A stretch of 64,000 nt of DNA, from the IMG/VR virus record IMGVR_UViG_3300024521_000001, positions 1-64,000 of that record; one strand, given 5' to 3'. The stretch's first letter is position 1. Each line of letters begins with the position of its first letter. This DNA comes from a virus. The notes under the pieces are model-generated. The model saw nothing but the letters and a program-made list of their open reading frames with translations, did not search any database and was not told where the DNA came from. Both the position numbers and the translations under genes were made by a program. Shown here in pieces: positions 1,107 through 45,665 of the stretch.

Positions 1107-1412
1107 GGTGAAAGGTCCCTGGAGCCAGAAGACATTCTTTTTCAGTGACTTCAGAGGGAAGTGGTGAAAGGTGGTGAAAGGTCCCTGGACACTTTTCACC
1201 AGAGTTAAGATCTTTTCTATCAAGAGGATATCCTGTGTAAATGTATTGGGTGCAAGGAAAGGGGGTCATAACTCTTTCTATAAATCTCTAAAAGGGTTTC
1301 CGGGTTTCCTATACTAAAGTCTTGGAAGAGGGGGGGGTACCTTTCACCATCCTGTAAGTCCTTTCTTGTCAGGCTCTAATTTGGTGAAAGGTGGTGAAAG
1401 GTGGTGAAAGGT
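1107..1412. repeat. Iteron-like direct repeats GGTGAAAGGT
   Basis: Exact GGTGAAAGGT at 1107, 1163, 1173, 1383, 1393 and 1403. An exact inverted copy lies at 1339 and a one-mismatch inverted copy at 1191. Two groups are in tandem with a 10 bp step, one helical turn. The copies at 1107 and 1173 extend into a longer shared block ending in CCCTGGA. Such phased iterons are typical of initiator or repressor binding at replication origins. Confidence 0.7.
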
Positions 1413-1430
1413 GTTTTAGTCAGCTAAAAC
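1413..1430. other. Perfect hairpin next to the iterons
   Basis: GTTTTAG and CTAAAAC form a perfect 7-bp inverted repeat with a 4-nt loop, starting one base after the last tandem iteron. It could be a dyad operator, part of an origin, or a weak stem-loop. There is no U-tract on either side that would make it a terminator. Confidence 0.45.
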
Positions 1431-1641
1431 AAAACAAGGGGGTTTTCGGGGTCAGTCAAATACTTTGCTGATTTACTACGCACCCTATTCACCAAACCGG
1501 CTCCCGAAATGGTGCAAGGGTGCATGCTATTTGACCATCTTTTTTATTTGACCCGGAAACTACCCACCTAACCCACACTCTCTCTATCCTCCCGATCTCG
1601 TATTTATACACTTATCTCTGCATAAATCTTTGCTGATTTCG

Positions 1642-1819
1642 CTAACATTCCCGAGGAGATCCAGTACCTAACACTCTCCCTCTGTTGTGTGAAAGATCCC
1701 ACTAACATTCCCTGTACTGAAGCCCCTATCTAACACTCCCAGGGAACACCGTTCTAACATTCCCCATCCCTCCATCCCTCATCAATCTGGCTCATAATAG
1801 GGACGCTGCTAACACTCCC
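1642..1819 (-). promoter_or_regulatory. Cluster of 11-mer repeats, left control region
   Basis: Exact copies at 1642, 1702, 1730, 1754 and 1809 and a degenerate one at 1668. Adjacent spacings are 26, 34, 28, 24 and 55 (about twice 27) bp, close to two and a half helical turns. The last copy forms the stop codon of the zinc-ribbon gene at 1809-2018. A phased array like this suggests cooperative binding of a protein on the DNA or the transcript. Confidence 0.65.
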
Positions 1820-5416: not shown

Positions 5417-5482
5417 CTAACATTCCCTCTGGCGGCGATCACGAGCTAACATTCCCGCAAAGAGCTCCCCACTAACACTCCC
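5417..5482 (-). promoter_or_regulatory. Three-copy 11-mer cluster
   Basis: Exact copies at 5417, 5446 and 5472, spaced 29 and 26 bp, fill the gap between two genes. The 5472 copy supplies the stop codon of the upstream gene and the 5417 copy is 25 bp before the next start. Position fits control of the run of zinc-ribbon genes that follows. Confidence 0.65.
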
Positions 5483-6179: not shown

Positions 6180-6267
6180 CTAACACTCCCAACCGGGCAT
6201 GATGCCCTAACACTCCCCGTAGCTTCAATCTAACATTCCCCGATTCAAAATCAGTTCTAACCTTCCC
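6180..6267 (-). promoter_or_regulatory. Four-copy 11-mer cluster
   Basis: Exact copies at 6180, 6207 and 6230 and a one-mismatch copy at 6257; spacings 27, 23 and 27 bp. A 13-bp palindrome (GGGCATGATGCCC, 6195-6207) lies between the first two. The last copy overlaps the stop of the upstream gene. It fills the 117-bp gap before the gene at 5867-6139. Confidence 0.65.
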
Positions 6268-20225: not shown

Positions 20226-20791
20226 TTCCTCTCCTTTACAGTGATGCTGGCTTCAAGCGCATACTCAGGCAGCTTGAAGGCGGTCCTGAATGCCTGGGTC
20301 TTGGACGAGTAGGCTTCCGAGTACATGAGGATCTGTCCGTTGCCCCCGATCAGGTGGATCCTCCACTTCTTCGCCTTGTCTTTGAACAGTCCGATCCTGG
20401 GTGAGATGCGTGGGTGTTCCGTTTCTTCCTCGTTCTCCAAGTCCGGACACGCTGCCAGGACCTCTCTCGCACGGTTGGCAGCACGACGAGCGTTGGATCG
20501 GCTATGGCCCTCGCTGGTTAGAATGATTCTGCCATTGGGAGTGAGCAGATGAAACCGCCACTCCTCCCTCTTGTCAATGAACAGCTCGAACCTGACCTTG
20601 CTGACCATAGCCCTGACCTTGGACTGTCCGATGTAGAAGTAAACCCCTACTTCATCCGTGTGCTGCCACTTCAGGCCAAGCTCGTCCAGGATCTTCTTGT
20701 GACGGTCAGGGGGGATGGTGATCACTTCGGGTATCCCGGTCCCGAAGATGGTATGGACTGAGTTCTGAAGCTCCTCAAATTGTTTGAACAT
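20222..20791 (-). CDS. Tandem DUF1508-like protein
   Basis: 189 residues with two copies of a DUF1508-type unit at about residues 66-110 (FELFIDKREEWRFHLLTPNG) and 133-175 (IGLFKDKAKKWRIHLIGGNG), each followed by a helix. The first 60 residues are helical. Related in fold to the single-domain gene at 13214. Role unknown. Its start lies 17 bp inside the membrane-protein gene upstream. Confidence 0.6.
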   Translation of the reverse strand: MFKQFEELQNSVHTIFGTGIPEVITIPPDRHKKILDELGLKWQHTDEVGVYFYIGQSKVRAMVSKVRFELFIDKREEWRFHLLTPNGRIILTSEGHSRSNARRAANRAREVLAACPDLENEEETEHPRISPRIGLFKDKAKKWRIHLIGGNGQILMYSEAYSSKTQAFRTAFKLPEYALEASITVKERK

Positions 20792-21170
20792 GGATATCCT
20801 CTCTGCTGTAAGCGACCAGGACGTGCGTTCCGACCTCCTTCACTCCACTGGCCCGCGCTTTATCAAGCAAAGGTATCCTCTGTTGATCCAGTTTCATCTT
20901 TGCCTCTCTCTCATCGTTAGCCACGACTCCCACAAGAAACTCTCTGCGGTCGTTGCGGTCGTCTTCCCGGCCTGTCCACCAATGCCAATAGATGGGTTGG
21001 CTGTAACCCCTGAGTCGTTCAATTACCTCGTCCTTGGTAGCCATGCGCTTCTTGTATGTCTTAGCTCCATGGTCCCGACCAAAACCCCATCCGATAGCAC
21101 CACCCATGATGGCGACGACCAGCAAAACAAACGAGGCCTGTAACCAAGTCCACATTGATATCTCACCCAT
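20775..21170 (-). CDS. Membrane-anchored hypothetical protein
   Basis: 131 residues. N-terminal membrane helix (FVLLVVAIMGGAIGWGFG), a charged linker, then a small alpha/beta domain containing WHWWTGRED. Start shares one base with the TnpB-like stop (TAATG), so it is co-translated with it; the gRNA of a canonical TnpB would be expected to overlap this junction. No family recognised. Confidence 0.6.
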   Translation of the reverse strand: MGEISMWTWLQASFVLLVVAIMGGAIGWGFGRDHGAKTYKKRMATKDEVIERLRGYSQPIYWHWWTGREDDRNDRREFLVGVVANDEREAKMKLDQQRIPLLDKARASGVKEVGTHVLVAYSREDIHVQTI

Positions 21171-22453
21171 TATTGCTCTCCCCTCTGGCCTACGGCCAAC
21201 AGTCTATTCTTTAACCGTGACTCGATCATGTTCAATTCCTCCACCTTTCCCTTCAGGATCTTTCCCGGCTTGCGGGTGATCTTCCTTCGGCTCTTAGGCA
21301 ACAGGTTCTTGAGCGCGTTCCACTCAGCCCAATGGGACCGGCCACACTTCTCGCACAGGACGGAATGAGAAGCGTTGACCACCTGGGTCTGGCCTCCGCA
21401 GCGGCAACAATTACGGGTGACTCCAACCTTGTAGTCATTGACCACCTTGAAGGGCAATCCTGCCAGGGCCATCTTGTATTGAAGCTCGTCCAGCAGCTTC
21501 GCAAAGCAGTAGTTGGCCATGCGATAGTTCTTGGCCTTCTCCGGAGGACTCTTGCCCTTGGTGAACTTGTCGCGCACACGATTGTGACGACCTACGGTGA
21601 TGGCAGGATTGGTTCCCTCAACAGCCACGAAGATCCAATCACAGACCTGGGCCGAGACTGTATGCGTGATCCAGGTAGCAAAACGGTTCTCTCTCTGCCC
21701 AATCTGCTTGATCTTCTGGAGCTTCTTCTTCTCTCCCAGGGCCTTGCGGAGATTCCTCCATTTCCTTTTCAAATTCCAGTAGCTCTGGCCTCGGACGGTG
21801 AGGTAGCGGTAGGAGTTGTCGGCGTACACCACCAGGACAGAGACCAGCTTCCGCTGGCCTGTGTGGATGGTCACCAGGGATTTCCCTACGCCCTTCTCCC
21901 GTTTCACAATCGGCAACCGGCAAGCGATCGCTGCATACCATTTGCTTTTTCTCCGGAAGATCTCAACCTCTCCGTGTTTGACCGCCTTCTCGAGTACGAC
22001 CTTCTGTCTTTCACCGCAGCGGAACTCACAGTCAATGACCAGATCCTTGCGGAGTTGGATCCGCAGCCGGTACTCTCGTTTCATTTCATCATCCACAGGC
22101 AGCACCGAGACAGCCCGATCACGCGCACAGACGCGAGGTCTCCCGTCAGTCACGGAGGGCAGACCCCTCTCTTTGCTTTTCCATAGGCCAACATAGGATC
22201 TCCAGTTAGCGTTGATTTCCTGTGCAGCGGAGTCTTTCAGGTGGGAAGGGTAATCCTTCGGCATGGCGTGACGGGCCACGGAAGCGGTAGCAGACTCATC
22301 CTCGGCTTCTTTGGCAGCTAGGACAGCGCGGGTTCCTCGAACGAGACAATCTTTGTAGAGTTCACACCAGTAAAGAAGTTCAGCTTCGATCTCCGGAGTG
22401 ACGAGGAGTTTGACTTTGGCGGCAACGGTCTGCTCGGTTTGGTCCTGTTTCAC
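21170..22453 (-). CDS. TnpB-family protein with degenerate RuvC site (TldR-like candidate)
   Basis: 427 residues from the GTG at 22453 (AAGGG 9 nt upstream; an earlier GTG at 22480 would include an 11-mer). Layout is that of IS200/IS605 TnpB: N-terminal wedge and helical part, YRYLTVRGQSYWN, REN, AVEGTNPA, LLDELQYKMA and a zinc ribbon NCCRCG...LCEKCG. The first RuvC Asp (GIDxG in the family) is His in VTIHTG (about residue 197); the second site keeps Glu (279); the third (DxN in the family) is Glu in AEWN (377). No TnpA and no transposon ends. Inference: RNA-guided but cleavage-poor, possibly a repressor. Confidence 0.8.
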   Translation of the reverse strand: MKQDQTEQTVAAKVKLLVTPEIEAELLYWCELYKDCLVRGTRAVLAAKEAEDESATASVARHAMPKDYPSHLKDSAAQEINANWRSYVGLWKSKERGLPSVTDGRPRVCARDRAVSVLPVDDEMKREYRLRIQLRKDLVIDCEFRCGERQKVVLEKAVKHGEVEIFRRKSKWYAAIACRLPIVKREKGVGKSLVTIHTGQRKLVSVLVVYADNSYRYLTVRGQSYWNLKRKWRNLRKALGEKKKLQKIKQIGQRENRFATWITHTVSAQVCDWIFVAVEGTNPAITVGRHNRVRDKFTKGKSPPEKAKNYRMANYCFAKLLDELQYKMALAGLPFKVVNDYKVGVTRNCCRCGGQTQVVNASHSVLCEKCGRSHWAEWNALKNLLPKSRRKITRKPGKILKGKVEELNMIESRLKNRLLAVGQRGEQ

Positions 22454-22467
22454 TACGGTTGTCCCTT

Positions 22468-22503
22468 CTAACAATCCCACGATTAATGAGACCTAACATT
22501 CCC
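22468..22503 (-). promoter_or_regulatory. Two 11-mers before the TnpB-like gene
   Basis: Exact copies at 22468 and 22493, 25 bp apart, immediately upstream of the preferred GTG start. They are followed (upstream) by CCCCTAAAAAGGGG, a short self-complementary stretch at 22501-22514. Confidence 0.6.
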
Positions 22504-22513
22504 CTAAAAAGGG

Positions 22514-22561
22514 GATGGGGAGTGTGTGGCCCGACCTTTTGGGTCTACCACCCTCCCCATC
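22514..22561 (-). ncRNA. Structured RNA or terminator after the tRNA
   Basis: A perfect 9-bp stem (GATGGGGAG 22514-22522 with CTCCCCATC 22553-22561) encloses further pairing (GACC with GGTC around TTTT). On the minus strand the stem is followed by CCCTTTTTA, so it may act as a rho-independent terminator after the tRNA. As an alternative it is part of an RNA serving the TnpB-like protein next door. Confidence 0.45.
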
Positions 22562-22563
22562 GT

Positions 22564-22582
22564 GCGCTGTGTTAGGCAGCGC
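22564..22582 (-). ncRNA. Hairpin between tRNA and TnpB-like gene
   Basis: GCGCTG (22564-22569) and CAGCGC (22577-22582) form a perfect 6-bp stem with a 7-nt loop. With the neighbouring 9-bp stem it makes the whole 115-bp gap between tRNA and TnpB highly structured. No open reading frame fits. Confidence 0.4.
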
Positions 22583-22619
22583 GGACGGTTAGCGAACTTG
22601 AGCGCACACCGCCTCACTA

Positions 22620-22696
22620 TGGTAGCGGGGGAGGGATTCGAACCCCCGACCTCAAGGTTATGAGCCTTGCGAGCTACCGGACTGCTCTACCCCGCG
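22620..22696 (-). tRNA. tRNA-Met(CAT), initiator type (fMet)
   Basis: 77 nt with encoded CCA. Anticodon CAT in loop CTCATAA. Three initiator marks: no pair at 1:72 (C1 with U72), A11:U24 in the D stem (GAGC/GCTC), and G30:C40 plus G31:C39 next to the anticodon loop (the third G:C of enterobacterial initiators is A:U). T loop TTCGAAT. The 5' end follows directly after the stop of the DnaJ-type zinc-finger gene, with no gap. Would deliver formyl-Met to phage starts. Confidence 0.9.
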
Positions 22697-23128
22697 TTAA
22701 TTAACCAAGGCATCCGATTGAATGAGTTTTCCCTGTTCGACCAAGTCAACGGCTTTTTCTAGCATCCACAATACACTCTGCCTATTGCCAGGGTCCAGAT
22801 GTTTGACCTCGATGGTGACTCCTTGGCCTAATTCCTTACCTTCTGGGCCTGTCAGCTTCCAGGTCTGAATCTCCAAAGTGGGGTTTAGAATGTTTCGGTC
22901 GATGTCACCAACACCGCCACAGTACGGACAGGGATCGAGGATCTTACCTTCCGACTTCAGTTGCCCTACTCCCCGGCAGAAGTTACAGACGACTCTAGTA
23001 CCACCTGTCTTGCGCTGCTCCTGCAGCAACGCTTCCCTCATGGCTTTAACAGTCTGCTGGAGGACCTCAACGGCTTCCATGAGGTCCTTGTTGGCCGAGA
23101 GCAGGATCTCGATTACTTTTCCTTCCAT
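22697..23128 (-). CDS. DnaJ-type zinc-finger protein
   Basis: 143 residues. N-terminal coiled coil (residues 5-38), then CNFCRGVG and CPYCGGVG, two CxxCxGxG repeats of the DnaJ central domain, about 18 residues apart. A beta-rich C-terminal part follows. No J-domain (HPD) is present. Such stand-alone DnaJ zinc fingers occur in phages and bind proteins or RNA. Start shares a base with the ParB stop (TAATG). Confidence 0.7.
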   Translation of the reverse strand: MEGKVIEILLSANKDLMEAVEVLQQTVKAMREALLQEQRKTGGTRVVCNFCRGVGQLKSEGKILDPCPYCGGVGDIDRNILNPTLEIQTWKLTGPEGKELGQGVTIEVKHLDPGNRQSVLWMLEKAVDLVEQGKLIQSDALVN

Positions 23129-27917: not shown

Positions 27918-27972
27918 GGTTTTATCTTTCTATCTCCTGGTTTTAGTGTGAAGTCCTAACATTCCCCAAGCT

Positions 27973-34532: not shown

Positions 34533-37500
34533 CTAGGGGGTTGGTGGTAGTTCGGTCGGGACTTCCGGTGTGACCGGAATATTTTCCGGAGTTACCGGAA
34601 TTGGTTCCATCTGCATCCTCGCTCCGGAACGAGTGGCTTTGAATCTGGATTGATTTCTCTCCCAATACAGTTGGTTGAGTTGGGTGTTTATCTCCTCCAG
34701 GTTTTTTACGCCTGGCATAGCTCTTGCAGCTTCGAGAAGACTTATTTTCATCCTTAAACTGTCCAGCCTTTGGGCAATGTTTTTTATGTCCATTGAGGGG
34801 CCAGGCTGCTCTTGAATGACTTTCAATTTGGACCAAAAAGCCGCTGGATCTTCATCTACGAGTTGAGCTTCGATGGCAGCATCCGTCGCTGCTTCGTATT
34901 TGTCGCCCAATTCCATGTTCACTCGACCCGCTGCATACGCCAGCATCTCATCTGGGTTCGGCGCGATACCTTTTTTGTCCACAGCGTCCCGAGCAATGTG
35001 CCTCTTTGCGACATTGAAATCCGAGACTTTCTGTTTCTGTTTCACAGGATCCAAAGCTCGCTGCACATGGTTAATCATGATTATGGTGTCGTGGGCGTCC
35101 TCCAACACTTGTCTGTAGTGCCGCTGATTGGTTGTTTCCGACTCCCCTTTATTCTTTTGGCCGTTGAATCGCCGTTGTTCCCGCGACAAATCCTCGTAGA
35201 AAGTGTCAACAGCCAAAGATCGTCTTCCCTCACGCCCACCTGGACGCACTAGCGAACTGAGTATGGGTACTCCTTCGAGCTCCTTAAGGGAAATCCTTCG
35301 ACTTGGAACACCTAGACCTAGAGTGTCTAAAATGTCAGGACCAAGCCCTCCAAAGAAACCTCTAATCGCATGGTCTATCCTTCTCGGGGAAGCCTGATTG
35401 GGAAACATATCACCAAGCATTCCAGCGAGTTTTGAGGTATAAGGTCCACGTTGGTCGCCGGGGGGATCGTTCAACTCACCGATGGGAACGATTGGGGAGT
35501 TTGTGAAAAACCGCTCGTTCGCAAATTGCTCCAGGACTACGTCCGGAATGACCGGGAGTGCCGCAGGATTTACTTGTTCCGACCATTGACCGAAGACTTC
35601 TATAATAGCTTCAGGATCTTGCCGATACATAGCGTCCCAGATTGCCTCCGGAACCGCAGTAAAGATAGTTCCCCATTCAAAGCCTCGTGGAATTTGCCAG
35701 ATGTGTTTGCCATCGTCGATGTTCCAGTAGGTGAATCGCTCCCAATAGGGCATGTCCGTGTACCACTCTTCGTCCTTGTTCAACCACCAAAGCGCAAGGG
35801 TGAGACTGGTCAAGCCCATCACTCCTCGAATGACCGTCCTTTTCGGCTTGCTCTTGAACGTCCTGAGTGTGAGGCGAGTACCTTGAATCTGTGCATTGAA
35901 GAACGGAACGGCCTGGTTGACTGCCTGGCCGACGCTTCCTCCTGCGGAGAAATCAACGGTGACCCGCTTTGTATCCAAGAGCAGCTGCAAGGATTGGGCG
36001 AAGGACATGGGTTGCCCTGGCTTCCAGCCCATTTCTTTTGCCCGAAGTTTCAGTTCGGCTGTTCTTGTGGCTGACTCTGGGATCTGCATGATCTCTCGTA
36101 AGTGATCAATAGGGTTCGTGACGACCTTCATAACCCGTCCTCGGAATAATCTCTTAGCGGCTCTCCTGGTAAATCGAATGTCTATACCAAGAGGCTGAGA
36201 GACTTCCGCTCCAAGCCGACGCATCAGATCGTAATGTTCTGATTGTTTTCCATGCCTAATAATGTCCTGCATCTGGAAGGTCCAGGCAGCGGCCAGCTCT
36301 GCTGGATTGGCATTACTCGCTGTCTGCATGAAAAAGGTCTGAAGATCTCGGGCGGGATTCCGTACCCAGGCAAAGGAAGCCCGTAATCCAGTCGTTCCAA
36401 GACGGAACAATCTCGCCGGTTTACCGAGGACAATATCCCATCCTTTAGGAAGGCGGTAAACATCCAACCCCGACAAGGACGCGTACAGTTCCGGATCAAT
36501 CTGAAACCATCTTACGACTCCGTTTTCCACAAGCGGAATGATCGGGTCCATCCCTTTCGGGTGTTGAGCGGGGATGAAAAAAGTCAGGATCGAATCCAGG
36601 GTTTCTTCGGGGGATTCTAGTTTCTGGAATCCCTCAGCCTTGAGCAGAACATCTTCTGCTGTTTCACCGATTTCGATTCCCTTTTGTTTCAGAACACCAA
36701 GAACCTGTGCCGTACTTATGGTGACTGGAACAACCCCACGATCGACTTCCTCGATCATATGGCCCATTCCTTCGATGTGTCTCAACTTCAGGATTTGATC
36801 AATGATAATTCGTTGATGGGTTTTAAGGATGATATTTGTAGCATTCTCTATCATCACTTCAAAGGGATCTCTGATTCTGCGCCCGGAACCTCTCATTCTG
36901 TTGGTGATGCTTCCGGTCGACCATCCCCCGCGAAGTCTCCTGACGTAGCCAGAGTCTATATCGTCCAACACGCGGGCCAAGGGGATGTAGTCTTGGCTTC
37001 CCTCTATGATTTTATCGAGGGCTTGCTGTGTGATTAAACCACCTTGAACAGCGTAATTGAGTACCCCCCGATTCCACTCATAGACCTTCTGGGCAGCTCT
37101 CTGAAATTCCGGAGTCTCAAAATGTTCTACAAGAAATTCAGCATCGTTTTTCGAGATTCCAGGGTTCTTATTCTCCTTCCATCTTTCTATGGCACGCCTA
37201 CCCCAGAGATAAAGAGTAAATTCTTCTCTCTGATCTTTCACCAAGGCTCCAGCATCTTCCAGACTCGGCCCAACAGGAACGCCAGCGATATTGATCATAT
37301 GATCTTCAACCATGTAGGCCGCTCTTGCAGTATGGGTGTGGCGAAGGGCATGAAATGTCAACTCTGGATTTTCCTCAATCGCTATCCCTGATCCTTTCAG
37401 GGTTGTAGCAATGCTGGTCAAATGCTCATATGCGGATCCGGCCTCGACCCATTTTTGATAGGAGAACAGATCCAGGATTGAAAGAAGTCTCTGCTTGACG

Positions 37501-40500
37501 GTCGGAGTGATAGCGGCCTTCATTGCTTTGCCCCGCTGCACAGCACCTTGAAGTCGCCATTTGGTAACGGCTGACTTGGCTTCGTTGAAGGCGTCCGCGA
37601 TCTTTGGGTTGTCCTTCAGGAACTCCTTAACAAACCATCTGTGGGTCTGAGGGGCTTTTCGAGCTGCTTCAATATCGGTTGTCAGTTCGAGTCGGATGAA
37701 CTCAGCAAATCCTTCGCGCTTGTATCCACCCTCCGGGTGCTTGCTTTTGTATAAGTCCTTCCCCATTTTCACGAGTTCAGCCCGCACTACCGGAGGACGA
37801 GTTTCCCAATGGCTTTTTGATCCTCTGAGGTATCCGAATACTGCTTTATCAAGTGCATGGCCCATCTCATGGGCAGCAGTTGGAAGGTTGTTCGCAACTC
37901 TCAATCGAATGACTTCTGCTAAAACCTTGAAGATACCTCTGGCCTTCTTCCTAAACCTGTGTAAGCGGAACGGAACTGTTCGATCGGCCGCGGTGAGCAC
38001 ATTCTCGAAAGACTTAATGATCTCAGGTGCACCCATTGGCTTACCCTTATCCGTCAGTTGGTCTAGCATTTCCATTTCCATATCCCGTTCTGCATTGAAT
38101 CCCAGGATTGGATCTTCCACATTCTGCTGAAAATCCGCTGGAAGCTGGTCTAAACCAAACCCTGTTGCAGACTCCGTTTTGAACGGGAACAACACTTGTT
38201 CTGGTGATGCTGGAAGCACAGAAGCAATTCCTGGAGCACCACCACCCTCTGGAGAAGGAGGTAATGTTCCAGGTTCCGCTGTCTCTCCGGGCATGACATC
38301 GGGATCACCGTATGTAGCGGCCTCCGGACGTACATCTGGCTGCATGCCAGTCCTGTCTTTAACCGCTTTGTGGCGTTCGAGGAGTCGCCCGAGAGCGTTT
38401 GGACCTTCGACTGAATCAAGCGGAATGAAAAATCTCCGCTTGTAATCAATCTTTTCTGATTTCAAACCAAAGGTTTCCAGTTCCTCCTTGTTGTAATTTC
38501 TACCAGCATCCAGCTCCATGCGATCTTCTCTTTTAACCTTGGTCATGAGAAGTCGCCAACCGTTGTCCAGCTCGATCATCGACTTGTTGTTCAAGACCAA
38601 GTCGTAGATTTCCTGTGCTGTGGCATTACCTAACGGAGTACCGATGCCAAGTCTCTGCTTAAGCCCTCCTATTTCTCCGGGTTGGACCGCAATACCAATG
38701 TGAGAGCTACCGTCGTCCAGAGTTGCTCGAACCACACCCAAGCGTCTGATCTGCTCGTCTCCCGTGACCTTGTCATAGATCGGGAAAATGGGTGCTGTTA
38801 GAAGGTGAACCGGTTTCTTTACGCTATCGGGGATCTCGGAGTATTCTTTGTTCCATTGTGTTTCAGCGGCTGCTTCCTCCAGTTGGGTGAAGTTCTGATC
38901 TTCCTCAAGTTGGTAAGCCTCGACCTCATGTGCATTTCCTGTAGGACTTGAGAGGAGGACCTGGGCCTGATAACCCTCTTTCCCGGCCTGAAGTGCTTGA
39001 TGGCTCCATTTTGATTTCTCGGTTCTGTGAGCAACGTAGATCTTCTCGCTCCGCTTATTGACGTAATAGCCCATCGGCCTAGTCGTCATAGGACTGTCGC
39101 CAAAAGCCATCTTCGGTACGGGAAAGTCCCCTTCAAGCTCGATGAGAACAGTCTCAGCCTTGGATTCCGGGTGGGTATAAACAACTTCTGGCTTGCTTTT
39201 CAGCACAAGGCTAGTTGGACGACGGTTGCGCTCGTCGGTGACTGGTGTCACTCCAACGTCAAAGGTTCCATCTTGTTTCGCTATTTGAGATATGCGCTGA
39301 TACTCGGCATAGAAATGTTCAAAGACACTGTTTTGAACATCAACGTGAAGGGCCATGATCCGATTGAGAAAGCGATTCACATCCGTTAAGTGCGCCCTTC
39401 TGAGCTTGCCATCGGCCGACGCAATTCCCATCCGCTGTAGGAGCTGCATCCCTGTCTTCACACCGTCAATGGCGTCCCTCTGTATCGCTCTGTAGGTCTC
39501 AGAAAGGGCCGCTTCTCCGTACTGGTCGGTAATGTCTTCGACTTCAAAGAGGCTTCCACCGAGCGTTTCCCGACCGCCCTTAGTTAAAGCACCAAGGCTT
39601 GCCAGTCGTTTAGCTACGGTATTGATCAGGCGTTCTTGGCCGCGTAAGTTGGTCCTAAGTAACTTGATGATCGGAGCCTCAGCCTGAAAAGAACGATGCA
39701 CTCGGCCAAAGGCTTGCATCTGTTGATCCGCGCTCCAACTGAGCTGCATCGCGTAGAAAACACGACGTTGTTGGTTCTTTGCGGTTTTGTCAGAGTGTAG
39801 AGAAATGCCCGTCGAAGCTGCGCCGGTGATGATGGCAATTCTCACGTCCTGATTTTGAAATCTGGCAGTCTCGTGTAAGTTGAGATCTTTGAAAGAGACA
39901 CCCTTTATGCTTCGACGTTCGGGTTTACCGTTTACTATTCTGCGGGGACGACCGGAGATCTCTGCAATGTTGCTCACGCCGAAGTGATCGACGATCTCAT
40001 CCATAGGATTGACAGGAAGTTGGATATCAGAGACCTTGTCAATTAAGTCTTGTTGCTTCGCCAAGTTTTCTCTGTTGATGAGAGGTTCACCGTCCTGAAG
40101 AACCGGAACTGGACTCGTTCTCCCGGTCGCTGGATCGTACTTATCCTCGTATTGTTCGAGCGGGAATTGGCTCTCGATCAGTTGCACGATCATTTCTCTG
40201 GGCGTGAGATCCAGATTCTCTGCATCTTCCCCTGCTGCTGTGGCTTTCGTGATCGCTCGATCCGTTTGAGCTTGATTGGTGTTATAGAGACTGATCACCG
40301 TAGATCTTCCAGCTGCCAGATCCTTATCCGCAGCAGCAAGTAAATCAGGCAACTGATAACTCATCATGAGCTGGAGGAAAAACTGCTGCTGCCTGGCGTA
40401 GAACTGACTAAATGCAGTCCCGCCTTTTTTCTGACCGGCGTTTTCCTGTGCTTCCTCAAACGCTGTTAGGAGATCGTCCCACAGATCAGCCATTTGGTTG

Positions 40501-43500
40501 TATTGTCCGACCTGGAGATCGTTGAGGTCATGGGTGATGGTCTCGTAATCAACGCCCTTATAACTGATTGACCGGCTAATGTAAGCACCGATCGACTTCA
40601 GGTCTCGGGAAAGCATTTCCATGGCCCCGATACCACCCCGCGTCATGGCCCCGAGAAAGTCTATGAAGGTACTGAAAGGACCTCCAGCTCCCCATAGTCC
40701 AAGACGCTGCATGTAACCCATATTGCGCGGGACGGTAGCTCCTGTGGCGCTCACATAGACTATTTTGGCCTTGGGGAACGCTTCTTGTACGCTGAGTCCC
40801 ATAGCCCCACGATCGGTCCCGGCCTTATCACTGACAGTCCCGCCATGCCCCGTACCGATAGCGTTCTTCATGGCATGAGCCTCATCGAAGACAATGACAC
40901 CGTCGAAATCTTTGCCTAGCCAGCTCTCTAGCTGCTTGTAACGGGCTTTTGTGCCTTTCCACCCATGCGCGAGTAGAGAATAAGTTGTGAAAAGCACCCC
41001 GTCTTCATCGGCGATCTGATCTTTTGTCTTAGTGATGCCATGATGGATCAGGTCCATTGGCACACCGACGCCTTTAAGATCTCTTTCGGCATCGGCTCTT
41101 AATTGGTGAGAAACGGAGACCCAAACGGCCCTCTTTCGTCCCCGGTTGAAATTGTCGTAGATGATCCCGCCAACTTCTCTACCTTTCCCGACCCCTGTTC
41201 CATCTCCGATCCAGTACCCAGGTGTTTTGCCATCAGCCATGGTCTGAGAATGCCTTTGCCCTGCGTAGGTGACAGCTTCCATCTGTACGTCGCTCAGTCT
41301 GCCTTCTTGGACTACTTCAGGTGGTAGGTTTGGAGTGTAGGTAACGTCTGGAGCTAGGACACTAGCCATCGTTGAACTCTCAACGATATCGGCAGGATGA
41401 GGTTGGGAACCTTCGAAGAGGGCTTTTTGAACGGTGTAGGCCGAGAAGACTTCTTCTTCTTCTACAGCGGATTGACGAGCTTCTTCAATGCGCGTTAAAC
41501 CGGGAGATACAGGTCCAACTCGTCCAGCACCAGGACCACCAGGCTCGCCGCCCACGTCGCCAGGTCTTCTTCCTTCTCCGGTATCGGGCTGTCTTCCCGT
41601 AACATCAGCTTCTCCAACTCCCGCAACAGGACCTTCGGATTCCGGTTCCACACGGCCAGCCACCGGTCCCACTGTGCCGGTGACGGCTCCCCCGACCCCG
41701 GTGGGAGTTGGAGGGATGCGTTCTCGTCCCCCAGGGCCTCTGCCAGTAGCACCAGGAGAGGGTACTCCTTCGGGAGCGGGACTCGGCCGAACTCCTCCTG
41801 GAGTAGCTGGAATGCCCGCTTGTTCTGCTGGTTTAGAAAGTCGCCCACTTATATCCTCTTTGGCTAAAGGTCCAAGGAGTTTGAGAGCCTCTTTGGGTGA
41901 TAAGTCTTTCCCTAGTATAACATTATTGAGCTGATCTATGCGGGTATCGCCTGGAGTTGGACCCGTCTTGTCAATGACAATGATGTTGTTATCAAAAGTA
42001 GTTCCATACTTCGCATAGTGCTTCCCACTGATCCCGATGTTGGCCCGAACAGTGTACTTACCTTCTATCTTTTTCCACCACTTCTGAAAGTTGGGCCTGT
42101 CGTGGGCCATTCCTTGCCCTACAATGGCCACCAGTCGACCGCCTTCATTTAGCCTAATCAACGCCTGTTCAACGTGCTTTGCGCCATGTAGCGTAGCGTG
42201 GCCCTTGGTTTTACCCCCTGTTGCGGAGAAGGGTGGGTTCATTACGATAACGTCAGGTTGGATTTTCGGGTCAAGAGTGCTGTTCAAAAGCTCTGCATCC
42301 ACTTGTTCTGTTTTGAACCCTTGGTTTCTGAGGATCTGGGCCCGTCGATCGGTGAGTTCATTGACAGAAACATTGGCGCCGGCCAGTCGCATTTGTACGG
42401 CGATATTTCCAGTTCCTGCCGATGGCTCTAACGCAGTCATTCCAGGCGTGATACCGGCTGCATAGGTAGCGGTAAAAGCCTGACCAGGAGGAGTGCTGAA
42501 CTGTTGAAACTCCTCTTTCTCTGTAGTTCTATCTGTTTGCCTGGGTAATCGAGCGGTGATCTCCAGCAATCTGTCGTAGGTCCCCTCCGGATCGTTGAAA
42601 TCTACGATGGCGGGATCCGCTGCCTCGATCATCATATTGACACCGGCTTCGGCGGCATCCTGAGAATCACTTGGAGTGTATTTCCCTTCTCCCTTCTCTC
42701 CTCCAAATGCCTCGTTTGCGATCTCTGTGAGCCTGGGGTTGCCAATGGTTTCGCCAGCTGCCAGTTCGTCCTGGATGGTCTGAGCAATCAGCTGGTGAGG
42801 ATTGAGTCCTTCCCCGGCTTCTAACTCAGCCTCCTCTTTCATGTCTTTTTCCAGTTCCCTAATAGCTCCTAATAACTCGGCTTCTCTTCCAGTAAGCCCC
42901 TTCAATCCGGTTTCCTCTGGCGTGGGAGCTATGGCTGCTGTCGGTTCCTGCCTAGAGACTTCGCTCACAGGGACGCTTGTGGCCCCTACTGCCCCCGTTG
43001 CAAGCGAGACCATCTCTACCCCTTCATCGTTAACGAAGGTATCCATCACATCGACTTCCTTGCCTTTGTAGATGACCGTCTCTCCCGTGGCGATAGGCAA
43101 AGGTGTTACGCCTAGAGGTGTCATACCAGGGATGGCCTCAACTTGAGGGGTTACTGGCTTTTTGGCTGCTGGCTTTTTGGCTGCTGGCTTGTCAGGCGTG
43201 GGAGCTATTGCAGTAGGTAAGACCTCTTCTACTGGCGGTGTCCCTCTCGCGGGGACCCCAAACCGTTCTGCAATTTCATCAACCTGTTTTCGGATAACCT
43301 TGGAGGCAACGATAGTCTTAGGAGGAAAAGGAATTTCAGTTCCAGCTCCATACCTCCAGTTCGTGTATTCCCCCGCCCATCGTTTCTGCTCGGGGGACCT
43401 TAAACCGTCGACGTATTCCGCGCTCGCCTGACGCGCCTGATCCAAGGGAACTGGAGGTGCTACGGCCTCTTCAGCCGGGGTAACCACAGAAGCCACCTCT

Positions 43501-45665
43501 GGGGCTACGGCTTCAGTGGGCGGAGCCTCCTTCTCGCGCTCTCTTTCAATCTGTTTTTCTTCCTCCGCCTTCACCCTCATTGCCCCGGCCGGTGGTTCTT
43601 TCGGTGGGGCAACACCTTCTTCTTCTGCCGGTGTTGGAGGTACGGCAGCGGGGGGAGCGGATGCAGCGGGTGGTATCGCTGGCGGTTGCTGGACTGTCTC
43701 GAAGGGTAAAGGCTTTTGAACCCCTGCGGCTTTTACCATCGCCTCTGTGCGAACTTTCTGTGAGGCTTCCGCGTAAGACTTATCGAAACGCTCCATGTTT
43801 CTATAGAATTTGTCCATCTCATCCTGGGTTTCGAATCCCATTTCCCTCATTCTTCGAATACCCATGGCGGACATCATCATGTTTGCAGCAAACCCTAGTA
43901 TTCCTCCAGCACCAGCTCCTTCTGAAACCCCTTCCCAATAATCTCTTTGCTCGTCAAAGGTCATCTTTGCTGTTATGTTCCCACCTAACTGCTGCACAAG
44001 CTCCTGCACGCCTTCTTCGATTGATCCAGCAAATCCGGATCGCAACATCCTGGTTGCATTTCCTCCGGTAGCCTTGTTGAACCTCGAGAACGCCATGCCA
44101 ATAGGAACCGCTTCAGTTGATCCAGTAAGAAGCCCTCCGACCCAAGCGGCCAGGGCCGCTTCGTCATTAGCTCCGTGCTGTTTAGCTTCCCTGTAAAGGG
44201 CTGCTGATTCTGTTGCACTTCCAGCCAACAAAGGAACGGCCCAAGATGAAAGTCCAGCCTTAGATCCAAGCCCTCCAAGTAGGTAGAATCCCGCCAAACT
44301 GCCAGCTCCCTGAGGGAGAACTGATACTGCGAAAGATTCTGCAAACACTGGATTTTGAGGGAAAGCCTTAACCAGTCCTGCTCTTAGCGATTCTCCAAGT
44401 TGGTACATGTCTTTGTCGGTTGGAGATTCATAGGCTTTCTCTATTTCTTTAGGAGTCCTTACTCCAAATTCTCCAGGTAGCTTGAAGTCGAATTTAATGG
44501 CAAGTTTCTCTAACGCAGATTGGGCAATGGCTGGTGTTTGAATAACACCAGCGAAGATATTCCCAAGACCCATGGCGATTCCACCTATGGACTGTTCCAC
44601 TCTCCCCAATTCCTCGGGGCCAAGGTCTATCTTGGCCATGTCTACTTCTCGTTTACCCCAATCTTTGAAGTCCTTCCATGTGGTCCTCGCAAGTCCTGGA
44701 AGTTTACTCATAAGCACCATTGGGTGAGCGGCATCAATCCAATCTATGGCAAGGGGATCTTTCTCTGGTCGCTGCTCAGGAGTAGAAATTTGACGATGGG
44801 TATTTAACTGCCCTTCCTTCAGAGCGGCTTGTAGTTCCGGAAAGGGTTTCCCCGCTTTTGCAAAGGCATCAATGGTTCGAGAGATATTCAGATCGCCCTG
44901 CCACTTTTCATCCAGCATGGACTGGCGGCTTTTATTATCCATGCCGACATAGTCCTGGTAGTCATCTTCGGCATGGACCGCATCTTCCCACCTACCGCCT
45001 TGAAATTTACTTTCCAGCTGGTACATCCATGTTCCACCATCCTCTGTCTCAAAGGCGTACCGCGCTCCAGGTGTTCCTTCATCTATCACGGGCGGTCTAT
45101 TGAAGTTGAATCGACCGGGCCGACCTCCCATCACTAGAGGTGGACTGTAGCCTGACGGGAGCTTTGGTGTGACCAACTCCGCTAGATCGGGTTCGGGTTT
45201 CACTCCTGAGACCGCTAGATCGGGTTCGACTCCTGGGACCGAAGGTTCCACCAGTTCTGGAACTGGTGGGATGGTTTCCCCAATTTTCTGATGAGCAGAC
45301 AGCAACGCAGCAGGGGGAAGTTCCATCTCCTTTGGCTTTTCCTCTGGCGTAGGAGCTATCGTTGCAGCGGGCGCAGCCTGGATCCGTTGAGCAGCTCCAG
45401 TAGGAGCTAGACTCGGAGTCGGAGTCGGAATTGGAGCGGGTGCAGCTGGCATCCGGCCCCACTTGAGATTCCAGATCGCCGCTTTCGTGGCATCGGGTAT
45501 GTCGAGAGGATCAAGAACTCCCTGTAGGTTTTTGCCAGTGTAGTTGGTCCTAAAGACATGATCGGATATCTGAGTTTTCGACCCTTCTTCGATCGCAAGG
45601 GGGCGCAGGATTCCCTGGAGTGCATCCCGACGTTTTTGCTTGGGTCCCGTCTGTTCTTCAGCCAT
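34533..45665 (-). CDS. Giant polyvalent protein: N6-methylase, Strawberry-notch helicase, zincin, LPD38-like region
   Basis: 3710 residues. In order: Pro/Ala-rich N-terminus; a Gly/Ala-rich hydrophobic zone (about 360-600); EPSAGTGNIAVQM and NPPFSATGG (about 1078-1145), an N6-adenine methylase; a disordered Gly/Pro/Arg linker (about 1275-1390); GDGTGVGKG, DEAH and a QAFGRVHR-type motif (about 1487-2010), the Strawberry-notch SF2 helicase; a zincin AAHEMGHALD (about 2600); then a C-terminal helical LPD38-like part (VPFFNAQIQGTRLT, about 3240). Such polyvalent proteins are injected with the DNA and protect it. Catalytic residues look intact. Confidence 0.85.
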   Translation of the reverse strand: MAEEQTGPKQKRRDALQGILRPLAIEEGSKTQISDHVFRTNYTGKNLQGVLDPLDIPDATKAAIWNLKWGRMPAAPAPIPTPTPSLAPTGAAQRIQAAPAATIAPTPEEKPKEMELPPAALLSAHQKIGETIPPVPELVEPSVPGVEPDLAVSGVKPEPDLAELVTPKLPSGYSPPLVMGGRPGRFNFNRPPVIDEGTPGARYAFETEDGGTWMYQLESKFQGGRWEDAVHAEDDYQDYVGMDNKSRQSMLDEKWQGDLNISRTIDAFAKAGKPFPELQAALKEGQLNTHRQISTPEQRPEKDPLAIDWIDAAHPMVLMSKLPGLARTTWKDFKDWGKREVDMAKIDLGPEELGRVEQSIGGIAMGLGNIFAGVIQTPAIAQSALEKLAIKFDFKLPGEFGVRTPKEIEKAYESPTDKDMYQLGESLRAGLVKAFPQNPVFAESFAVSVLPQGAGSLAGFYLLGGLGSKAGLSSWAVPLLAGSATESAALYREAKQHGANDEAALAAWVGGLLTGSTEAVPIGMAFSRFNKATGGNATRMLRSGFAGSIEEGVQELVQQLGGNITAKMTFDEQRDYWEGVSEGAGAGGILGFAANMMMSAMGIRRMREMGFETQDEMDKFYRNMERFDKSYAEASQKVRTEAMVKAAGVQKPLPFETVQQPPAIPPAASAPPAAVPPTPAEEEGVAPPKEPPAGAMRVKAEEEKQIEREREKEAPPTEAVAPEVASVVTPAEEAVAPPVPLDQARQASAEYVDGLRSPEQKRWAGEYTNWRYGAGTEIPFPPKTIVASKVIRKQVDEIAERFGVPARGTPPVEEVLPTAIAPTPDKPAAKKPAAKKPVTPQVEAIPGMTPLGVTPLPIATGETVIYKGKEVDVMDTFVNDEGVEMVSLATGAVGATSVPVSEVSRQEPTAAIAPTPEETGLKGLTGREAELLGAIRELEKDMKEEAELEAGEGLNPHQLIAQTIQDELAAGETIGNPRLTEIANEAFGGEKGEGKYTPSDSQDAAEAGVNMMIEAADPAIVDFNDPEGTYDRLLEITARLPRQTDRTTEKEEFQQFSTPPGQAFTATYAAGITPGMTALEPSAGTGNIAVQMRLAGANVSVNELTDRRAQILRNQGFKTEQVDAELLNSTLDPKIQPDVIVMNPPFSATGGKTKGHATLHGAKHVEQALIRLNEGGRLVAIVGQGMAHDRPNFQKWWKKIEGKYTVRANIGISGKHYAKYGTTFDNNIIVIDKTGPTPGDTRIDQLNNVILGKDLSPKEALKLLGPLAKEDISGRLSKPAEQAGIPATPGGVRPSPAPEGVPSPGATGRGPGGRERIPPTPTGVGGAVTGTVGPVAGRVEPESEGPVAGVGEADVTGRQPDTGEGRRPGDVGGEPGGPGAGRVGPVSPGLTRIEEARQSAVEEEEVFSAYTVQKALFEGSQPHPADIVESSTMASVLAPDVTYTPNLPPEVVQEGRLSDVQMEAVTYAGQRHSQTMADGKTPGYWIGDGTGVGKGREVGGIIYDNFNRGRKRAVWVSVSHQLRADAERDLKGVGVPMDLIHHGITKTKDQIADEDGVLFTTYSLLAHGWKGTKARYKQLESWLGKDFDGVIVFDEAHAMKNAIGTGHGGTVSDKAGTDRGAMGLSVQEAFPKAKIVYVSATGATVPRNMGYMQRLGLWGAGGPFSTFIDFLGAMTRGGIGAMEMLSRDLKSIGAYISRSISYKGVDYETITHDLNDLQVGQYNQMADLWDDLLTAFEEAQENAGQKKGGTAFSQFYARQQQFFLQLMMSYQLPDLLAAADKDLAAGRSTVISLYNTNQAQTDRAITKATAAGEDAENLDLTPREMIVQLIESQFPLEQYEDKYDPATGRTSPVPVLQDGEPLINRENLAKQQDLIDKVSDIQLPVNPMDEIVDHFGVSNIAEISGRPRRIVNGKPERRSIKGVSFKDLNLHETARFQNQDVRIAIITGAASTGISLHSDKTAKNQQRRVFYAMQLSWSADQQMQAFGRVHRSFQAEAPIIKLLRTNLRGQERLINTVAKRLASLGALTKGGRETLGGSLFEVEDITDQYGEAALSETYRAIQRDAIDGVKTGMQLLQRMGIASADGKLRRAHLTDVNRFLNRIMALHVDVQNSVFEHFYAEYQRISQIAKQDGTFDVGVTPVTDERNRRPTSLVLKSKPEVVYTHPESKAETVLIELEGDFPVPKMAFGDSPMTTRPMGYYVNKRSEKIYVAHRTEKSKWSHQALQAGKEGYQAQVLLSSPTGNAHEVEAYQLEEDQNFTQLEEAAAETQWNKEYSEIPDSVKKPVHLLTAPIFPIYDKVTGDEQIRRLGVVRATLDDGSSHIGIAVQPGEIGGLKQRLGIGTPLGNATAQEIYDLVLNNKSMIELDNGWRLLMTKVKREDRMELDAGRNYNKEELETFGLKSEKIDYKRRFFIPLDSVEGPNALGRLLERHKAVKDRTGMQPDVRPEAATYGDPDVMPGETAEPGTLPPSPEGGGAPGIASVLPASPEQVLFPFKTESATGFGLDQLPADFQQNVEDPILGFNAERDMEMEMLDQLTDKGKPMGAPEIIKSFENVLTAADRTVPFRLHRFRKKARGIFKVLAEVIRLRVANNLPTAAHEMGHALDKAVFGYLRGSKSHWETRPPVVRAELVKMGKDLYKSKHPEGGYKREGFAEFIRLELTTDIEAARKAPQTHRWFVKEFLKDNPKIADAFNEAKSAVTKWRLQGAVQRGKAMKAAITPTVKQRLLSILDLFSYQKWVEAGSAYEHLTSIATTLKGSGIAIEENPELTFHALRHTHTARAAYMVEDHMINIAGVPVGPSLEDAGALVKDQREEFTLYLWGRRAIERWKENKNPGISKNDAEFLVEHFETPEFQRAAQKVYEWNRGVLNYAVQGGLITQQALDKIIEGSQDYIPLARVLDDIDSGYVRRLRGGWSTGSITNRMRGSGRRIRDPFEVMIENATNIILKTHQRIIIDQILKLRHIEGMGHMIEEVDRGVVPVTISTAQVLGVLKQKGIEIGETAEDVLLKAEGFQKLESPEETLDSILTFFIPAQHPKGMDPIIPLVENGVVRWFQIDPELYASLSGLDVYRLPKGWDIVLGKPARLFRLGTTGLRASFAWVRNPARDLQTFFMQTASNANPAELAAAWTFQMQDIIRHGKQSEHYDLMRRLGAEVSQPLGIDIRFTRRAAKRLFRGRVMKVVTNPIDHLREIMQIPESATRTAELKLRAKEMGWKPGQPMSFAQSLQLLLDTKRVTVDFSAGGSVGQAVNQAVPFFNAQIQGTRLTLRTFKSKPKRTVIRGVMGLTSLTLALWWLNKDEEWYTDMPYWERFTYWNIDDGKHIWQIPRGFEWGTIFTAVPEAIWDAMYRQDPEAIIEVFGQWSEQVNPAALPVIPDVVLEQFANERFFTNSPIVPIGELNDPPGDQRGPYTSKLAGMLGDMFPNQASPRRIDHAIRGFFGGLGPDILDTLGLGVPSRRISLKELEGVPILSSLVRPGGREGRRSLAVDTFYEDLSREQRRFNGQKNKGESETTNQRHYRQVLEDAHDTIIMINHVQRALDPVKQKQKVSDFNVAKRHIARDAVDKKGIAPNPDEMLAYAAGRVNMELGDKYEAATDAAIEAQLVDEDPAAFWSKLKVIQEQPGPSMDIKNIAQRLDSLRMKISLLEAARAMPGVKNLEEINTQLNQLYWERNQSRFKATRSGARMQMEPIPVTPENIPVTPEVPTELPPTP

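What the first reader, a model, noticed from the sequence alone, without database searches (positions are those of the whole stretch)
21170..22453. TnpB homologue with His and Glu in place of two RuvC Asp residues: candidate phage TldR
The first RuvC motif reads VTIHTG where the family has GIDxG, and the third reads AEWN where it has DxN; the Glu of the second and both zinc CxxC pairs remain. No transposase and no element ends are seen, and it is embedded in a phage operon. TnpB-like nuclease-dead repressors (TldR) with guide RNA are known from prophages, so RNA-guided silencing of host or rival-phage promoters is plausible. Some TnpB lineages move catalytic residues elsewhere, which would keep cleavage.
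Basis: partly seen in the sequence, partly recalled or inferred. Interest (0 to 1): 0.82.

Follow-up and report, generated by a model that had tools for sequence, protein, structure and literature searches.

The report
Phage dead TnpB beside structured RNA
A bacterial virus carries a conserved relative of the RNA-guided DNA cutter TnpB in which the cutting residues have been replaced, and the most strongly folded RNA in the window's coding strand lies directly in front of the gene, so the protein probably binds RNA and DNA without cutting.

Summary
The ORF is real (21170-22453, minus strand, 427 aa). It is an orphan TnpB/Cas12f-like protein in a 108-kb tailed-phage record. Its only close relative found is 97% identical, at the same place in a second phage contig (dN/dS 0.09). 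H197 replaces RuvC-I Asp, E377 replaces RuvC-III Asp, and HMMER, HHalign and MAFFT all put G288, not E279, in the RuvC-II Glu column. Related TnpBs with residues in those columns read D 109/109, E 107/108, D 106/106. H for the first D also occurs in natural Cas12m2, which binds and silences without cutting.

The TldR label is only partly earned. The 3' end shows no guide-RNA signal: the next gene starts inside the stop codon and folding is ordinary there, while related TnpBs fold strongly at that point. Instead, the most structured of 983 tested windows lies directly 5' of the gene, between tRNA-Met and the ORF, and 144 nt spanning it are identical in both phages. One apical loop (CCUAACA) is complementary to an 11-nt motif repeated 35 times on one strand of this phage. 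Best reading: a domesticated, non-cleaving TnpB, possibly with a 5'-encoded RNA partner. RNA binding and targets remain untested.

The parts
21170..22453 (-). TnpB/Cas12f-like protein, 427 aa (P0001), RuvC triad replaced; GTG start at 22453 or an upstream in-frame GTG at 22480
21863..21865 (-). H197 codon at the RuvC-I Asp position (VTIHTG)
   Evidence: D in 109 of 109 relatives with a residue there
21590..21592 (-). G288 codon at the RuvC-II Glu column
   Evidence: E in 107 of 108 relatives with a residue there
21617..21619 (-).
21323..21325 (-). E377 codon at the RuvC-III Asp position (AEWN)
   Evidence: D in 106 of 106 relatives with a residue there
21344..21409 (-). Zinc-ribbon cysteines C349/C352 and C367/C370, retained
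22505..22619 (-). Candidate structured RNA between tRNA-Met and the tnpB-like start; most structured of 983 windows (z -5.9), within a 144-nt run identical in the second phage
22570..22576 (-). Apical loop CCUAACA of that RNA, complementary to the phage-wide motif core UGUUAG(G)
22468..22478 (-). Copy of the phage-wide strand-specific motif GGGRNTGTTAG in the leader
22493..22503 (-). Second copy of GGGRNTGTTAG, directly 3' of the structured RNA
22620..22696 (-). tRNA-Met (CAT) directly upstream of the structured RNA
20775..21170 (-). Downstream ORF131 whose ATG overlaps the tnpB-like stop (TAATG), leaving no noncoding space for a 3' guide RNA

Best explanation
A TnpB-derived protein that this phage lineage has domesticated and whose RuvC nuclease no longer cuts. 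Shown: its TnpB homology and domain layout, replacement of the catalytic positions, purifying selection, fixed location, and a conserved structured RNA element directly 5' of the gene. Inferred: it keeps RNA binding and works as an RNA-directed (or at least structured-RNA-binding) DNA-binding regulator, like TldR or Cas12m2, blocking transcription of phage or host genes during infection. Its RNA, if any, is probably the 5' element and not the usual 3' omega RNA.
For: TnpB family by HMM and fold (Cas12f, TnpB, Fanzor2 and Cas12m among the solved-structure hits). Catalytic columns D/E/D in 109/109, 107/108 and 106/106 relatives with residues there are H/G/E here, identical in the second phage. 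The zinc ribbon and N-terminal conserved residues are kept. dN/dS 0.09, lowest of 11 genes compared, with no amino-acid change in the last 170 residues. No Y1 transposase in the record. The window's strongest coding-strand RNA structure abuts the gene, within a run identical in the second phage. D-to-H occurs in natural Cas12m2, which binds and silences without dsDNA cleavage (PMC10442227).
Against: No demonstrated guide RNA, TAM or target. Only two members known, too few for covariation. The RuvC-II assignment rests on alignment at about 22% identity, and no independent model supports it. The 5' RNA could be a tRNA trailer, terminator-like element or leader; 5' flanks of other TnpB genes are also often structured. 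The two phages show mosaic identical stretches, so the conservation of the RNA is suggestive only.
Confidence: 0.55

Rival explanations
1. A true TldR: guide RNA overlapping the 3' end of the ORF, silencing a host or rival-phage promoter.
For: Triad loss and domestication in a phage; few changes in the last 510 nt of the ORF (6 synonymous, 0 nonsynonymous), which could hide an overlapping RNA.
Against: The 3' region folds no better than chance (z -0.1 to -1.1) while related TnpBs average about -2.5 near the stop; the next gene starts in the stop codon and its 5' part is poorly conserved between the phages.
Confidence: 0.13
2. Still a nuclease, with relocated or substituted catalytic residues (E279, E377, H197).
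For: E279 and E377 are carboxylates near the site; RuvC-type nucleases with His in the site exist (own knowledge); the E279 reading cannot be fully excluded (forms strands at both 274-278 and 285-290, at very low confidence).
Against: Position 1 is His and position 2 most likely Gly. In Cas12m2 the analogous His leaves one metal and no dsDNA cleavage (PMC10442227).
Confidence: 0.14
3. A TnpB-derived protein that no longer uses RNA guides: a plain DNA- or RNA-binding phage protein, with the 5' RNA a leader or terminator of the tRNA-Met unit.
For: No 3' guide RNA; extreme divergence from all TnpBs (about 20-26% identity); the 5' element ends in a U tract and is followed by ordinary phage leader motifs.
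Against: Conservation of the whole TnpB layout including the zinc ribbon; the structure is far beyond a simple terminator, and the terminator scan does not call one there.
Confidence: 0.16
4. A decaying transposon remnant with no function.
For: Catalytic residues lost; no Y1 transposase in the record.
Against: Intact ORF, dN/dS 0.09, fixed locus in two phage contigs.
Confidence: 0.02

Closest known systems
TldR (TnpB-like nuclease-dead repressors; prophage fliC-, csrA-associated)
   Same: TnpB-derived, RuvC inactivated, phage-borne, separated from any transposase (PMC13418256).
   Different: TldR guide RNA lies downstream of the gene; here no 3' RNA signal and no room outside the next ORF. No known partner gene (fliC, csrA, hin) seen beside it. 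Sequence relation to TldR clades not tested.
Cas12m2 (type V-M)
   Same: His in place of the first RuvC Asp; binding without dsDNA cleavage is the expected outcome (PMC10442227).
   Different: No CRISPR array; 427 aa; the other two positions here are Gly and Glu, not Asp and Asp.
Active TnpB / Cas12f
   Same: Domain layout, zinc ribbon, fold hits.
   Different: Catalytic DED replaced; about 20-26% identity; no omega RNA signal at the 3' end.
IscB (own knowledge)
   Same: Its guide RNA lies 5' of the protein gene, as the RNA candidate does here.
   Different: IscB is a Cas9-type RuvC-HNH protein, not related at family level.

Membership tests
TnpB superfamily | RuvC-like core plus C-terminal zinc ribbon, family HMM match | tested here: met
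   NCBIfam match is below its curated cut-off
TnpB (active) | DED catalytic triad | tested here: not met
   H197/G288/E377; the second position is less certain
TnpB (active) | structured omega RNA at the 3' end of the ORF | tested here: not met
   z -0.1 to -1.1 against about -2.5 mean near the stop in relatives; this indicates absence, not proof
TldR | RuvC inactivation in a TnpB homologue | tested here: met
TldR | no transposase, association with non-transposon genes | tested here: met
TldR | guide RNA encoded downstream of the gene | tested here: not met
TldR | guide matches a promoter or gene next to a TAM | tested here: inconclusive
   no guide could be defined; the sequence 3' of the 5' RNA has no second match within 3 mismatches in the window
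TldR | RNA-guided DNA binding and repression | not testable with these tools
   needs RIP-seq and ChIP-seq
TldR | phylogenetic placement within known TldR clades | not tested
   no TldR sequences at hand
Cas12m (type V-M) | CRISPR array with crRNA | tested here: not met
   no repeats of CRISPR form in 108 kb

The most novel reading that the evidence does not exclude
The dead TnpB-like protein and the 5' structured RNA form a phage self-regulatory complex. The RNA's exposed 7-nt loop CCUAACA pairs with the motif GGGRNTGTTAG, present 35 times on the coding strand and 0 times on the other in this phage, mostly between genes or at stop codons. RNA-directed binding by a domesticated TnpB would then control the phage's own messages or leaders, including its own.
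Probability: 0.08. Interest if true: 0.88.

Novelty: new variant of a known kind. Interest (0 to 1): 0.6.

Why it matters
It would be an independent loss of TnpB cleavage in a tailed phage, in a lineage far from the other TnpBs examined here, with the first position changed to His as in Cas12m2. If the 5' RNA is its partner, the usual TnpB rule that the guide RNA is made at the 3' end does not hold here. The window also gives a concrete pull-down target (115 nt) and a phage-wide motif to test against it.

Tried and rejected
Rfam on the 5' element: nothing beyond tRNA. Guide search: the bases 3' of the RNA have no second match within 3 mismatches in the window; as a guide they would reduce to the phage-wide motif, which has no conserved 5' flank to serve as TAM. 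CRISPR array: none. Serine recombinase at 106090-106518 considered as an IS607 transposase: 84 kb away, rejected as partner. Search for further members: protein and DNA scans of IMG/VR, GTDB species genomes, INPHARED and PLSDB gave only the one 97% relative and distant TnpBs of about 20-26% identity. Synteny route via ParB and helicase: contigs of nearer relatives end before the locus or carry ParB elsewhere. Folding without the distant relatives failed (pLDDT 36). 100% conservation of the RNA alone was not taken as proof, since longer identical runs exist elsewhere.

Full report
Observation. The ORF is on the minus strand, 21170-22453, 427 aa. The window is part of a 108,390-base virus record. 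Family searches give NCBIfam guided_TnpB 1.5e-16 (60.7 bits, cut-off 100), Pfam Cas12f1-like_TNB 8.5e-8, PHROG 'transposase' 9.7e-12 and PADLOC Cas12f 1.8e-12. Solved relatives by fold of the model are AsCas12f, ISFba1 and other TnpB, Fanzor2 and Cas12m.

Active site. I gathered related TnpBs from species genomes and viral contigs. A profile from 77 of them aligns the query at 97 bits and puts H197, G288 and E377 at the three catalytic columns; HHalign agrees, as does MAFFT with 62 sequences. Over the wider set, including viral TnpBs, the columns read D 109/109, E 107/108 and D 106/106 where a residue is present; every viral or phage member that spans all three columns reads DED, and the rest of those listed are partial. 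Spacing favours G288 too (my count): reading E279 as the catalytic Glu would need about 13 extra residues before the next conserved block, G288 about 4. The AlphaFold model (pLDDT 71.6, pTM 0.66) ends the long helix at 278 and makes the strand 284-288, but it was fed the same alignment and is weak locally. A model without it is useless. I treat G288 as likely, not proven. Either way the first and third carboxylate positions are changed, the first to His, as in Cas12m2 (His-Asp-Asp), which coordinates one metal, does not cut dsDNA and silences by binding (PMC10442227).

Selection and context. The only close relative is in IMGVR_UViG_3300037459_000158, 97% identical, with the same neighbours in the same order. 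dN/dS is 0.094, lowest of 11 genes compared; the last 170 residues have no amino-acid change. Neighbours on the same strand: SbcC-like, RuvC resolvase, ParB-like, ORF143, tRNA-Met, [RNA], this gene, ORF131, a DUF1508 protein, two further ORFs, helicase, an 880-aa protein. No Y1 transposase in the record; one serine recombinase 84 kb away. One TnpB-like locus only.

RNA. In active TnpB and in TldR the guide RNA lies at or beyond the 3' end of the gene (TldR: PMC13418256; TnpB: own knowledge). Here the next start codon overlaps the stop (TAATG), and 3' folding is ordinary: z -1.1, -0.6 and -0.1 at three offsets, whereas 113 related loci average -1.4, -2.5 and -2.7, with 61-68% below -2 at the last two. 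By contrast the 5' interval 22491-22620 is the most structured of 983 coding-strand windows in the 64 kb (z -5.9; 200-shuffle test on a slightly longer piece z -4.7). A 144-nt run that includes it is identical in the second phage, where neighbouring genes have dS about 0.15-0.2. Caution: 5' flanks of other TnpB genes are also often structured (mean z -2.5), and identical runs up to 281 nt occur elsewhere in the pair. Rfam, plasmid and phage searches know only the adjoining tRNA.

A possible target. Directly 3' of the RNA lie two copies of GGGRNTGTTAG. This 11-mer occurs 35 times on the minus strand and never on the plus strand of the 108 kb (control pattern 0 and 1); most copies are intergenic and 5 overlap a stop codon, though the selected ORFs cover 88% of the genome. 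The same strand bias holds in related phage contigs. The RNA's middle hairpin GCGCUG-CCUAACA-CAGCGC shows a 7-nt loop (about 86% unpaired) complementary to UGUUAGG; CTAACA occurs only 5 times on the coding strand against 11 expected. In 6,000 dinucleotide shuffles of the RNA, 18 put CTAACA in an apical loop (0.3%). This test was made after seeing the match, so I count it as a lead. The loop could equally pair with the adjacent copies in cis.

Conclusion. A domesticated, very probably non-cleaving TnpB of a tailed-phage lineage. It works plausibly like TldR or Cas12m2, but it is not filed as TldR because the downstream guide RNA was tested and not found.

Noticed in passing
G000 whole record; e.g. 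window 1642-1819, 5417-5482, 6180-6240, 22468-22503, 27956-27966: Strand-specific 11-nt motif GGGRNTGTTAG, 35 minus and 0 plus, mostly intergenic or at stop codons, in short irregular clusters; also strand-biased in related phage contigs L003, L019, L023, L024, L026. Function unknown (leader, processing site or promoter).
   Followed up: partly
window 1161-1560: Second most structured coding-strand RNA window (1301-1430, z -5.0) with a repeated TGGTGAAAGG unit nearby, next to a cluster of the 11-nt motif.
   Followed up: no
window 34533-45665 (-): 3710-aa protein with AAA_34, Strawberry-notch helicase C-terminal and LPD38 polyvalent-protein domains.
   Followed up: no
window 22697-23128 (-): ORF143 upstream of tRNA-Met has a CxxC zinc motif weakly like Anti-TRAP (E 0.005, below cut-off).
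   Followed up: no
G000:C1:106090-106518 (+): Serine recombinase in the phage record; a serine recombinase gene also lies beside a ParB-like gene in L006.
   Followed up: partly
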